NCBI GenBank assembly: GCA_012517285.1
Contig: JAAYVG010000039.1
Location: 1 to 36,664 of the forward strand
Length of the DNA stretch: 36,664 nt
Reading direction: 5' to 3'
From: Elusimicrobiota bacterium
Lineage (GTDB): Bacteria; Elusimicrobiota; Elusimicrobia; Elusimicrobiales; UBA9959
The notes beneath the pieces were generated by a model, which was given only the letters and a program-made list of their open reading frames with translations, had not been told where the DNA came from and made no database searches. The number at the start of each line of letters is the position of its first letter. Position 1 is the stretch's first letter. Shown in pieces: positions 11,509-14,340 of this stretch. The translations under genes were made by a program, and so were the position numbers.

Positions 11509-11607
11509 ATGAAAATTAATCTGGAAATCTTCCTGAATTACCATGAGTTAGAGGGAGAAAGAATTTTAAGCAAACATGGTGAATATTATAAACTCCCGCA
11601 TTTTTAA
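11509..11607 (+). CDS. Small ORF (32 aa) with strong SD
   Basis: ATG is preceded by AAAGGAGGAG at ideal spacing and by a plausible promoter. The peptide starts MKINLEIFLNY and ends YYKLPHF; it is charged, with no membrane segment. Its stop codon falls inside the first copy of the dispersed ATCATCGAGATG repeat, so it may be the 5' stump of a longer gene cut by repeat insertion. It could equally be a genuine micro-protein. I do not recognise a family. Confidence 0.45.
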   Translation: MKINLEIFLNYHELEGERILSKHGEYYKLPHF

Positions 11608-11664
11608 TCATCGAGATGTAAACAGATAAATTAGTTATTTAATCATCGAGATGTAAACGGATAA
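11604..11664. repeat. Dispersed ATCATCGAGATGTAAAC repeat, two tandem copies
   Basis: Copies at 11604-11629 and 11639-11664 differ at one position (AACAGATAA versus AACGGATAA) and lie 35 bp apart with an intervening ATTAGTTAT. A decayed third piece (GATGAATACGGATAGTTTAG) follows. Relatives occur at 7379-7439 (inverted) and 34775-34800. Confidence 0.75.
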
Positions 11665-11746: not shown

Positions 11747-11810
11747 CCAACTTCGTAAGTTGGAAATATAACTCCATTTACAAATTTTCGTCCAACTTCG
11801 TAGGTTGGAC
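11747..11810. repeat. Pair of CCAACTTCG hairpins
   Basis: Hairpin 1 is CCAACTT-CGT-AAGTTGG (11747-11763). Hairpin 2, at 11790-11810, has a 7-bp stem GTCCAAC/GTTGGAC around TTCGTAG. The two share CCAACTTCGTARGTTGG and sit 43 bp apart. No T-tract follows, so they are not evident terminators. They lie between the small ORF and the methyltransferase promoter. Confidence 0.6.
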
Positions 11811-11871: not shown

Positions 11872-11900
11872 TTGTCTAATGATGTCTAATGTCGTATAAT
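11872..11900 (+). promoter_or_regulatory. Methyltransferase promoter with two direct repeats (candidate operator)
   Basis: TTGTCT (11872-11877) and a perfect TATAAT (11895-11900) have a 17-bp spacer. The 9-mer TGTCTAATG occurs twice (11873-11881 and 11883-11891), exactly 10 bp (one helical turn) apart, covering the -35 and the spacer. Direct repeats in that place suit a regulator binding on one DNA face; the HTH at the N-terminus of the gene product is an obvious candidate autoregulator (inference). Confidence 0.55.
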
Positions 11901-11923
11901 ATATATGAAGAGCAAAAACAGTT

Positions 11924-13522
11924 ATGGAACAAACCAAGCAAAAAACTAAAATGTTGAATACAAAACAAGCAGCAATATTTTTAGGCGTAAGCACAAAGAC
12001 AATTTATCGTATGGAAAAAAAAGGTTTATTGCATCCTATAAGAACACCAGGAGGACAACGTCGTTTTCCTAAACATTCTCTTGAAACATATCTTAATAAA
12101 AGTCGCGAATTTGCCGCACCTCAAAATCCAAGCAAGTTTTTAGTAAAAGAAGATGAAAATGTTTATTTATTTAATTCATCGGAGTTAAAACAAAAATCAC
12201 AGACGCATCAGCGAATTAATAGATTAGAACAAATCATTTCTTTGGGAGGATATTCTAATCATAATCAGCATTATAATTATAATAATAATATTAAGCACTG
12301 GATAGAAGAATGGGATTTTAAAAAATATCAAACAAAAACTTACACACACGGTTTTCATAATTATCCGGCGATGTTTATTCCACAAATTGCTCGTAAACTG
12401 ATTTCAGTTTTTTCAGAAGAAAAGGATACAGTATGTGATATTTTTTGTGGCTCTGGCACAACATTAGTTGAAAGCAGTTTGCTTAATCGTAATTCTATTG
12501 GAATTGAACTTAATCCTCTGGCAGTTTTAATCGCTCGTGTAAAAACAACACCAATTAATCCCAAAAACTTGACTGATAAACTTAAATTTATTATAGATGA
12601 ATATGAATCTATAAAGGATGTTCATCCATATTTTTTTACTAATATTGATTTCTGGTTTAAAAAGGATGTGATTAACGATCTTACACGATTAAAACAGGCA
12701 ATTTCTAAGATTCCTGAAGAAAATATCCGTAACTTCTTTTTCGTCTGTTTTAGCAATGTGGTTAGAATTGTTTCTTATACCAGACATGGAGAATTTAAAT
12801 TGTTTCGCTCTCCTAATAAAATGACAGATAAGTTTAAACCGGATGTTACAAGTGAATTTATTAAAATATGTGAAAATAATATTATAGGAATGAAAGAGTA
12901 TGTAAATAATATTTTTCCCCATACCCATTCTCGTATCATCATGGGGGATGCAACTAAAGATAATGGAATACCAAATAATTCAGTAGATCTCATTATTACT
13001 TCGCCTCCATACGGAGATAGTCGAACTACTGTGGCTTATGGACAATTTTCTAGATTATCTTCTCAATGGTTGGATTTACTTCCACCTAACATTAAAGATA
13101 TTGATAAAGAGTTAATTGGGGGAAAGAATAATGTTAACCTTAGCGATCCAATCTTAGACAAATCCATTACACTCAAGTTTAGCATTAATAGCATTGCAGA
13201 CAAAGATGAAGAACGAGCAAAAGAAGTATTGAGTTTTTATATAGATTTAAATAAGGCATTAATACAGGCACACAATATTCTTAAACCCAATAAATACTTT
13301 TGTTTGATCATCGGTAATAGAACAGTAAAAGAGTTAGTCTTAAAAACCGATACAATTATTTGTGAATTAGCAGAGAATATAGGATTTATACAACAAGGAA
13401 TTTTCTATCGTAATATTCCTAATAAACGAATGCCTTCAAGAAATAGTCCAACAAATGAAGCAGGTAAAACTGGTTCTACAATGCTGAAAGAAAGTATTAT
13501 TTTATTAAGAAAGGTGTACTAA
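11924..13522 (+). CDS. HTH-DNA methyltransferase fusion (N4/N6 amino-methyltransferase of a Type II R-M system)
   Basis: The 532-aa protein starts with a MerR/excisionase-type winged HTH (about 10-57: LNTKQAAIFLGVSTKTIYRM, then GGQRRFPKHSLETYL). A linker of about 70 aa leads to a Rossmann methyltransferase with SAM motif I DIFCGSGTT (172-180), IELNP, and catalytic motif IV TSPPY (359-363) followed by GDSRTTVAYGQFSRL. SPPY is typical of N4-cytosine enzymes, and the motif I-before-IV order differs from the beta-class remnant at 71-547. It converges with an MvaI/BcnI-type endonuclease; the stops overlap by 4 bp. A cytosine-N4 methylase protecting a CCNGG-like site is inferred from that partner (M.MvaI is N4-specific). 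The gene uses many CGT/CGC/CGA arginines, unlike the AGA/AGG neighbours, pointing to horizontal transfer. SD is weak (GAAGAG). Confidence 0.85.
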   Translation: MEQTKQKTKMLNTKQAAIFLGVSTKTIYRMEKKGLLHPIRTPGGQRRFPKHSLETYLNKSREFAAPQNPSKFLVKEDENVYLFNSSELKQKSQTHQRINRLEQIISLGGYSNHNQHYNYNNNIKHWIEEWDFKKYQTKTYTHGFHNYPAMFIPQIARKLISVFSEEKDTVCDIFCGSGTTLVESSLLNRNSIGIELNPLAVLIARVKTTPINPKNLTDKLKFIIDEYESIKDVHPYFFTNIDFWFKKDVINDLTRLKQAISKIPEENIRNFFFVCFSNVVRIVSYTRHGEFKLFRSPNKMTDKFKPDVTSEFIKICENNIIGMKEYVNNIFPHTHSRIIMGDATKDNGIPNNSVDLIITSPPYGDSRTTVAYGQFSRLSSQWLDLLPPNIKDIDKELIGGKNNVNLSDPILDKSITLKFSINSIADKDEERAKEVLSFYIDLNKALIQAHNILKPNKYFCLIIGNRTVKELVLKTDTIICELAENIGFIQQGIFYRNIPNKRMPSRNSPTNEAGKTGSTMLKESIILLRKVY

Positions 13523-14205
13523 TCTATTAAATCCACTATTTTTTTAAATAGATATGGCAATTTATTCTCATAAACTCTAAATCCAGTTCCATGATTTCGT
13601 GCCGTTGTTCCTTTGTCATGTAATCTTAAATCCACAAAAATATTCTCTGCCTTAAATTGATTAGATAGTAATTCTGGTGAAGTTCCTTGTAACAATTGAG
13701 CACGATAAAAATGAAACCACTCTCTCCCGTCTCTTTCTTCAGCAAAGGCAGATACAAGAATTAATGATGGTATTTTCTTTATAAAGGTTTCAGCCAAGTT
13801 TTTTAATGACCAAATTGCTATTATTTCTCCTGATATATGTCGTACCGATATATCTTTGTCATCTACATATAAGAATAAGCCTGCATTATTGGGTTTTAAG
13901 GACATTGTATAATAAAGACCTTTTCTTCCATTCCTATCTAAACTTCCATATTTTTTTACAGCTTCAAGCGGTGGCATTTGCCATACCTTACGATTAAAGG
14001 TGAAAAGGGTTATCATATTATTACTATCTGTACGATGTGCTTTAATCTCTGCATATCCAATGTCTGGTAAAGGCATGTTGTTTTCTTTTATACCAAGATA
14101 TGTTTCCAATGTATGTCCTATTCCAGTAGGTCCTTTTCTTGTAGATGGAACAAATCCTTTTTCCTTTAGTTCAGATAATTTTTTTTCGAATTCTTTTAAA
14201 TCCAT
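13519..14205 (-). CDS. MvaI/BcnI-family Type II restriction endonuclease
   Basis: The 228-aa protein is close in length to MvaI and BcnI (about 240). The N-terminal signature GPTGIGHTLETYLGIKENN (25-43) and PDIGYAEIK (47-55) give a PD-(D/E)XK site, with D48, E53 and K55 as likely catalytic residues and E34 nearby. Later TLFTF and the C-terminal HGTGFRVYENKLPYLF also fit the family. MvaI and BcnI cut within CC(W/S)GG as monomers; the exact site here cannot be read from sequence. It converges on the HTH-methyltransferase with a 4-bp overlap. The ATG has no SD; TATAAT lies 6 nt upstream inside a perfect 22-bp palindrome, so expression is probably leaderless and may be repressed there. Confidence 0.85.
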   Translation of the reverse strand: MDLKEFEKKLSELKEKGFVPSTRKGPTGIGHTLETYLGIKENNMPLPDIGYAEIKAHRTDSNNMITLFTFNRKVWQMPPLEAVKKYGSLDRNGRKGLYYTMSLKPNNAGLFLYVDDKDISVRHISGEIIAIWSLKNLAETFIKKIPSLILVSAFAEERDGREWFHFYRAQLLQGTSPELLSNQFKAENIFVDLRLHDKGTTARNHGTGFRVYENKLPYLFKKIVDLID

Positions 14206-14211
14206 ATTTAA

Positions 14212-14234
14212 ATTATAATTTTTAAAAATTATAA
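14212..14234 (-). promoter_or_regulatory. Endonuclease promoter -10 inside a perfect AT palindrome
   Basis: The 22-bp sequence at 14213-14234 is its own reverse complement and contains only A and T. The minus-strand -10 TATAAT (plus 14212-14217) overlaps it and ends 6 nt before the endonuclease ATG. A palindrome over a -10 box is a plausible operator, but palindromes of pure A/T can arise by chance in this base composition. Confidence 0.4.
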
Positions 14235-14295
14235 AATCAAACCATTATTGAAGTCATTATTATTTTTATCCATAAAAATTTTAAAAACATTACGA

Positions 14296-14340
14296 TTTCC
14301 CACGATCCCGAACCGTGATACGGTTCGGGATCGTGGGAAA
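14296..14340. repeat. Palindrome B (21-bp perfect arms)
   Basis: Arms 14296-14316 and 14320-14340 are perfectly complementary around the 3-nt loop GAT. The core ACGATCCCGAACCGT is identical to that of palindrome A at 7053-7089. A second small hairpin, TGTAATC-GAT-GATTACA (14343-14359), follows immediately. It lies in the spacer between the R-M system and rpmH. Confidence 0.85.

What the first reader, a model, noticed from the sequence alone, without database searches (positions are those of the whole stretch)
11924..14205. R-M system with HTH-methyltransferase fusion facing an MvaI/BcnI-type nuclease
The methyltransferase carries its own excisionase/MerR-type HTH, while no separate controller (C) protein is present. 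Convergent genes overlap by 4 bp. CGN arginine codons and flanking repeats point to recent acquisition. The fusion may be a self-contained controller-modification protein that times nuclease expression.
Basis: partly seen in the sequence, partly recalled or inferred. Interest (0 to 1): 0.6.

Follow-up and report, generated by a model that had tools for sequence, protein, structure and literature searches.

The report
Self-regulating DNA methylase with borrowed repressor
A bacterial restriction-modification pair has its protective methylase fused to a small DNA-binding domain that very probably switches its own gene off, and sister methylases in other bacteria are fused instead to a complete LexA-type (DNA-damage) repressor, a combination we did not find described.

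Summary
ORF 11924-13522 (+) is a HTH_17/MerR winged-helix domain fused to an m4C-type DNA methyltransferase; ORF 13519-14205 (-) is an MvaI/BcnI endonuclease with an intact catalytic triad; they converge with a 4-bp stop overlap and no C gene is nearby. The fusion is a conserved subfamily: 10 loci in several phyla.

The N-terminal domain is closest in fold to BldC, which binds direct repeats. In all 10 loci the M promoter sits inside three 10-bp direct repeats (window 11872-11901). That 30-bp island is 70-75% identical between loci while both flanks are at chance. The best site in every locus is at M; none lies at the R promoter.

Unexpectedly, 42 relatives (mostly Patescibacteria) carry the same methyltransferase fused to a complete LexA (DNA-binding plus S24 protease, autocleavage residues kept), mostly facing an MvaI/BcnI nuclease, with 11-bp direct repeats at their own promoters. 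The methyltransferase has thus acquired unrelated repressor heads. Binding, repression and damage response are inferred, not shown.

The parts
11924..13522 (+). M gene, 532 aa: winged-helix (HTH_17/BldC-like) domain fused to an amino-methyltransferase (N4/N6 type; TSPPYG motif suggests m4C)
11951..12103 (+). HTH_17/MerR winged-helix domain (aa 10-60, ..STKTIYRMEKKG..RTPGGQRRF..)
   Evidence: AF2 model mean pLDDT 82, best PDB match BldC-DNA complex 6ama, rmsd 1.4 A
12101..12133 (+). linker start with motif S....APQNPS (aa 60-70), invariant at S60 and A65-S70 in all ten fusions
12437..12481 (+). methyltransferase motif I (DIFCGSGTTLVESSL, aa 172-186), AdoMet binding
12998..13018 (+). methyltransferase motif IV (TSPPYGD, aa 359-365), catalytic
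11872..11901 (+). proposed operator: three 10-bp direct repeats TTGTCTAATG ATGTCTAATG TCGTATAATA; includes -35 (11872-11877) and -10 (11895-11900) of the M promoter
13519..14205 (-). R gene, 228 aa, MvaI/BcnI-family restriction endonuclease
14041..14067 (-). R catalytic segment PDIGYAEIK (P47 D48 ... E53 K55), with P, D, E and K invariant in the alignment
13519..13522 (.). 4-bp overlap of the two stop codons (CTAA); the same overlap occurs in 28 of 39 LexA-type relatives with a convergent R
14212..14257 (-). candidate R promoter(s) (ATGACT/TTGATT ... TATAAT); no repeat operator here

Best explanation
This is a Type II restriction-modification pair of the MvaI/BcnI kind whose methyltransferase carries its own transcriptional repressor. 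The N-terminal BldC-like winged helix binds three 10-bp direct repeats (one per helical turn) that contain the -35, the spacer and the -10 of the M promoter, probably as a head-to-tail oligomer, and so blocks RNA polymerase. On entry into a naive cell no M protein is present, M is transcribed at full rate and the genome becomes methylated; as M accumulates it shuts its own promoter and settles at a steady level. R is transcribed from its own promoter on the other strand and is not directly bound. Shown by sequence: the fusion, its conservation, the operator and its restriction to M, the intact catalytic residues. Inferred: binding, repression rather than activation, oligomerisation, the m4C product and the recognition site.
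For: The fusion is conserved in 10 loci across phyla, with HTH and linker motifs invariant. The 30-bp island is 0.70-0.75 identical between loci against 0.23-0.33 on both sides. Leave-one-out scoring of the 17-nt spacer alone (no promoter hexamers) ranks the M promoter first in 9 of 9 loci (tied with the adjacent repeat in the window). A held-out tenth locus found later scores 21.2, next best 9.8, and the upstream regions of 92 relatives without this HTH reach at most 10.1. Self-identity at lag 10 is 0.64, at other lags 0.12-0.31; in the window alone 5 of 2000 shuffles reach the observed tandem. The N-terminal model matches the BldC-DNA complexes best, and BldC binds direct repeats head-to-tail (PMC5859096). 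N-terminal HTH autorepression is established for other methyltransferases (PMC3874152; PMC3978073).
Against: No binding or expression data. BldC's repeat is 9 bp (AATTNNNNC), not this sequence. A MerR-type domain could activate instead of repress. The first and third repeats contain the -35 and -10 elements, so part of their conservation is promoter conservation. The window's third unit (TCGTATAATA) departs from the consensus.
Confidence: 0.78

Rival explanations
1. The fusion is a full controller that binds both the M and the R promoter and directly times nuclease expression.
For: No C gene near R in the window.
Against: No site resembling the operator lies upstream of R (or of the XRE-R pair) in any of the five loci tested, all scores negative. 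In L027 and L028 R is preceded by its own XRE gene.
Confidence: 0.06
2. The domain binds its own promoter but activates it (MerR-like), giving positive feedback on M.
For: MerR-family domains often activate; the operator overlaps the promoter.
Against: The -35/-10 spacing is 17 nt, the normal value, not the 19-20 nt of MerR-activated promoters (own knowledge). The repeats cover both -35 and -10, where a bound protein usually blocks polymerase. Positive feedback on M would be unlike the known self-regulating methyltransferases.
Confidence: 0.1
3. The HTH is not regulatory; it anchors the methyltransferase to DNA or helps target recognition, and the 30-bp island is merely a conserved promoter.
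For: Two of the three repeats contain promoter hexamers; no binding data.
Against: The non-promoter spacer is as conserved as the hexamers and repeats at 10 bp. Relatives without the HTH lack the motif. A second, unrelated repressor head (LexA) sits at the same position in sister proteins with its own repeats at the M promoter.
Confidence: 0.06

Closest known systems
M.SsoII / M.Ecl18kI / M.EcoRII / M.ScrFI / M.MspI autoregulating methyltransferases
   Same: N-terminal HTH region of a Type II methyltransferase binds an operator over its own promoter and represses its own gene (PMC3874152, PMC3978073).
   Different: M.SsoII is an m5C enzyme with a phage-repressor-like HTH, and in Ecl18kI M and R are divergent and their promoters compete (PMC3978073, PMC3874152). 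Here: amino-methyltransferase, BldC/Xis-type winged helix, direct repeats, convergent R with a distant promoter.
BldC family (Streptomyces)
   Same: Closest solved fold (6ama, 6amk) and binding to direct repeats about one helical turn apart.
   Different: BldC is a free-standing 68-aa protein with a 9-bp AT-rich repeat; here it is a domain of a methyltransferase and the repeat sequence differs.
MvaI/BcnI R-M systems
   Same: Nuclease family and convergent partner methyltransferase; a plasmid system in Halorubrum (pHLAC01) has the same layout and 4-bp overlap.
   Different: The plasmid methyltransferases examined have no N-terminal repressor domain; Liquorilactobacillus nagelii has a separate HTH gene next to R instead.
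LexA repressor
   Same: 42 sister methyltransferases carry LexA_DNA_bind plus Peptidase_S24 with the AG cleavage site, Ser and Lys.
   Different: There LexA is a domain of a methyltransferase; the window protein itself has no LexA or protease part.

Membership tests
MvaI/BcnI restriction endonucleases | Profile match over the full domain | tested here: met
   PF15515 E 2.9e-38, residues 8-220 of 228
MvaI/BcnI restriction endonucleases | Catalytic D...EXK | tested here: met
   D48, E53, K55 invariant in A2 and aligned with R.MvaI
MvaI/BcnI restriction endonucleases | Cleaves a CCNGG-type site | not testable with these tools
   needs the enzyme or methylation data
m4C amino-methyltransferases | Motif I (FxGxGT) and motif IV (S/T)PP(Y/F) | tested here: met
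   DIFCGSGTT at aa 172 and TSPPYG at aa 359, core residues invariant in A1/A3
m4C amino-methyltransferases | Product is N4-methylcytosine | not testable with these tools
   the motif only suggests it
BldC-like direct-repeat regulators | Winged-helix fold of the BldC/Xis type | tested here: met
   Foldseek best hit 6ama, rmsd 1.4 A; NCBIfam HTH_BldC E 5.2e-8 but below its curated cut-off
BldC-like direct-repeat regulators | Direct-repeat sites about one helical turn apart | tested here: met
   three 10-bp repeats in 10 loci; binding itself not tested
BldC-like direct-repeat regulators | AATTNNNNC repeat sequence | tested here: not met
   consensus here is TTGWCNANTN
Autorepressing methyltransferases (SsoII kind) | N-terminal HTH on the methyltransferase and operator over own promoter | tested here: met
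Autorepressing methyltransferases (SsoII kind) | Repression of own transcription | not testable with these tools
   needs a reporter assay
C-protein controlled R-M | Separate small XRE controller gene by R | tested here: not met
   none in the window; present in L027/L028

The most novel reading that the evidence does not exclude
One methyltransferase lineage has independently acquired unrelated repressor heads (BldC-like; LexA with its self-cleaving protease), making the protective enzyme itself the sensor-repressor of its R-M system. In the LexA form, DNA damage would cleave the fusion, release the M promoter and raise methylation: a damage-triggered relief of self-restriction built into a Type II system.
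Probability: 0.5. Interest if true: 0.78.

Novelty: new variant of a known kind. Interest (0 to 1): 0.6.

Why it matters
How a Type II system keeps methylase ahead of nuclease without a C protein is an old question. Here the control element can be read from sequence alone: a defined 30-bp operator conserved across phyla, tied to a defined domain. The sister LexA fusions, frequent in Patescibacteria, would link R-M to DNA damage within a single polypeptide, and every step (cleavage, release, induction) can be tested with standard assays.

Tried and rejected
Control of R by the fusion: no operator-like site upstream of R. CfrBI-style control by methylation of a promoter site: the only CCNGG site in the locus is inside M at 12047. 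Flanking repeats as marks of the acquired island: they are genome-wide families. An empty site in the same genus: G001 lacks the system, but its genes upstream of rnpA differ, so no clean junction could be drawn. Phage carriage of the HTH_17 form: no relative in viral contigs. Rfam elements around the locus: none. Full-length model: mean pLDDT 70 with a disordered linker, PDB hits only to generic methyltransferases, no added insight. Literature for LexA-methyltransferase or HTH_17-methyltransferase fusions: nothing found; this library is open-access only.

Full report
What is there. Window 11924-13522 (+) encodes 532 aa: a HTH_17/MerR winged helix (aa 10-60), a linker, and an amino-methyltransferase with motif I before motif IV (TSPPYG). 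Window 13519-14205 (-) encodes a 228-aa MvaI/BcnI endonuclease with D48, E53 and K55 conserved. The two converge and share CTAA. There is no C gene beside either. Neighbours are housekeeping: glyS, glyQ, recO to the left and rpmH, rnpA, yidD, yidC, jag to the right (names not covered are read from the ORF translations).

Is it more than chance. The fusion recurs as a unit. A scan of about 85,000 species genomes gave seven loci (L027-L033; Nitrospirota, Myxococcota, Poribacteria, Chloroflexota, uncultured), and whole-genome searches gave G005 (L010) and G326 (L144). In all ten the RTPGGQRRF wing and the S....APQNPS linker motif are invariant. On the methyltransferase tree the ten fall in two supported groups of 7 and 3 inside one 20-row clade that also holds ten members without this head; one gain, or two, fits.

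The operator. Upstream of M in all ten loci lies TTGWCNANTN or a near match three times at 10-bp spacing, with the -35 in the first unit and the -10 in the third, 17 nt apart. Pairwise identity between loci (nine compared) is 0.70, 0.71 and 0.75 for the three units and 0.23-0.33 for 10-nt blocks on both sides. Scoring only the 17-nt spacer, leaving each locus out in turn, puts this place first in 9 of 9 loci, against both strands of 4.6-37 kb; in the window the shifted neighbouring repeat ties with it. The tenth locus was found later and behaves the same: 21.2 against 9.8 for its next best. The 92 upstream regions of relatives without the head reach 10.1 at most. At R, or at the XRE-R pair, nothing similar is found. 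The AF2 model of aa 1-75 (mean pLDDT 82) matches the BldC-DNA complexes best (6ama, TM 0.75 by target length, rmsd 1.4 A). BldC binds direct repeats head-to-tail, one DNA turn apart (PMC5859096), and RdfS, of the same HTH_17 group, binds about one subunit per 10 bp (PMC11963761).

How it works. The simplest mechanism is autorepression: M binds its own three-repeat operator and excludes polymerase. This is the established behaviour of M.EcoRII, M.SsoII, M.Ecl18kI, M.ScrFI and M.MspI through an N-terminal HTH (PMC3874152; PMC3978073). In SsoII/Ecl18kI shutting M helps R because the two promoters compete; here R is far away on the other strand, so any effect on R must go through the M level. Relatives solve R control separately: L027 and L028 have an XRE gene ending just before R; the window does not.

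The wider picture. The scan gave something not asked for. In 42 loci, mostly Patescibacteria but also Omnitrophota, WOR-3, Myxococcota and Bdellovibrionota, the same methyltransferase is preceded by a complete LexA: Pfam LexA_DNA_bind 1e-11 and Peptidase_S24 3.8e-28 in L036. All 42 keep the AG bond, the Ser and the Lys. R is again convergent: of 39 with a measurable convergent R, 28 overlap it by exactly 4 bp. Their M promoters carry TTCKR-N6-TTCKR, an 11-bp direct repeat: 25 of 40 upstream regions on the + strand and 8 on the - strand, against at most one at any other spacing and 0.004 per 120 nt elsewhere. Upstream of R it occurs in 3 of 34. Thirteen of 34 such loci with enough flank also have an XRE gene right before R. 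On the tree 41 of the 42 lie in one clade, apart from the HTH_17 clade, together with three rows that lack the head or are cut by a contig end; L037 falls elsewhere with weak support, and support values come from the quick method. A viral relative (L109) has a third, weakly matched HTH. So the same slot has been filled by unrelated DNA-binding heads, and the two large groups each have their own direct repeats at their own M promoter. That is strong indirect support that the head in the window is a regulator.

Partners change too: L031-L033 face a BsaWI-type nuclease rather than MvaI/BcnI (Pfam RE_BsaWI for L032 and L033; L031 by sequence resemblance), L032 again with a 4-bp overlap.

Transfer. 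M and R use CGN arginine codons (67% and 42%, neighbours 0-23%), and G005 of the same family holds the system at another place with 73-79% identity while yidC is 46%. The flanking repeats are ordinary interspersed families of this genome.

Limits. No experiment. The product (m4C) and site are inferred. The quick tree does not fix the number of fusion events. LexA-type start codons were set by rule. Novelty of the LexA fusion rests on searches of open-access papers only.

Noticed in passing
L034-L086 (42 loci, e.g. L036:3350-5215, L080:3350-5215): Methyltransferase fused to a complete LexA (DNA-binding plus S24 protease, autocleavage residues kept) facing an MvaI/BcnI nuclease, mostly in Patescibacteria; 11-bp direct repeats at the M promoter.
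   Followed up: partly
L031:2662-3477, L032:5581-6369, L033:5628-6392: The HTH_17-methyltransferase here faces a BsaWI-type nuclease instead of MvaI/BcnI: the methylase keeps its head but the nuclease is swapped.
   Followed up: partly
L029:71-1681: HTH_17-methyltransferase with no recognisable nuclease beside it (a polA-like gene and an IS3-type transposase follow): possibly solitary.
   Followed up: no
L144:3881-4420: A gene resembling a mismatch/uracil DNA glycosylase (by eye) lies directly upstream of R, on the R strand; could repair deaminated methylcytosine, as Vsr does for m5C systems.
   Followed up: no
L098, L101, L105 (aa 1-80 of M): Nitrospirota methyltransferases with a different, cysteine-rich N-terminal extension (CC..TLDNC..C..C).
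   Followed up: no
window 11603-11664 and 11747-11809: Two repeat families: AATCATCGAGATGTAAAC (38 places at up to 1 mismatch in the genome) and CCAACTTCGTARGTTGGA (19 places), in several places as pairs about 45 nt apart.
   Followed up: partly
window 14296-14340: Perfect 21-bp inverted repeat TTTCCCACGATCCCGAACCGT with a 3-nt loop between R and rpmH; not scored as a terminator.
   Followed up: no
window about 14250: GC skew changes sign and cumulative skew has a low point near rpmH, so the R-M pair may lie close to a replication origin.
   Followed up: no
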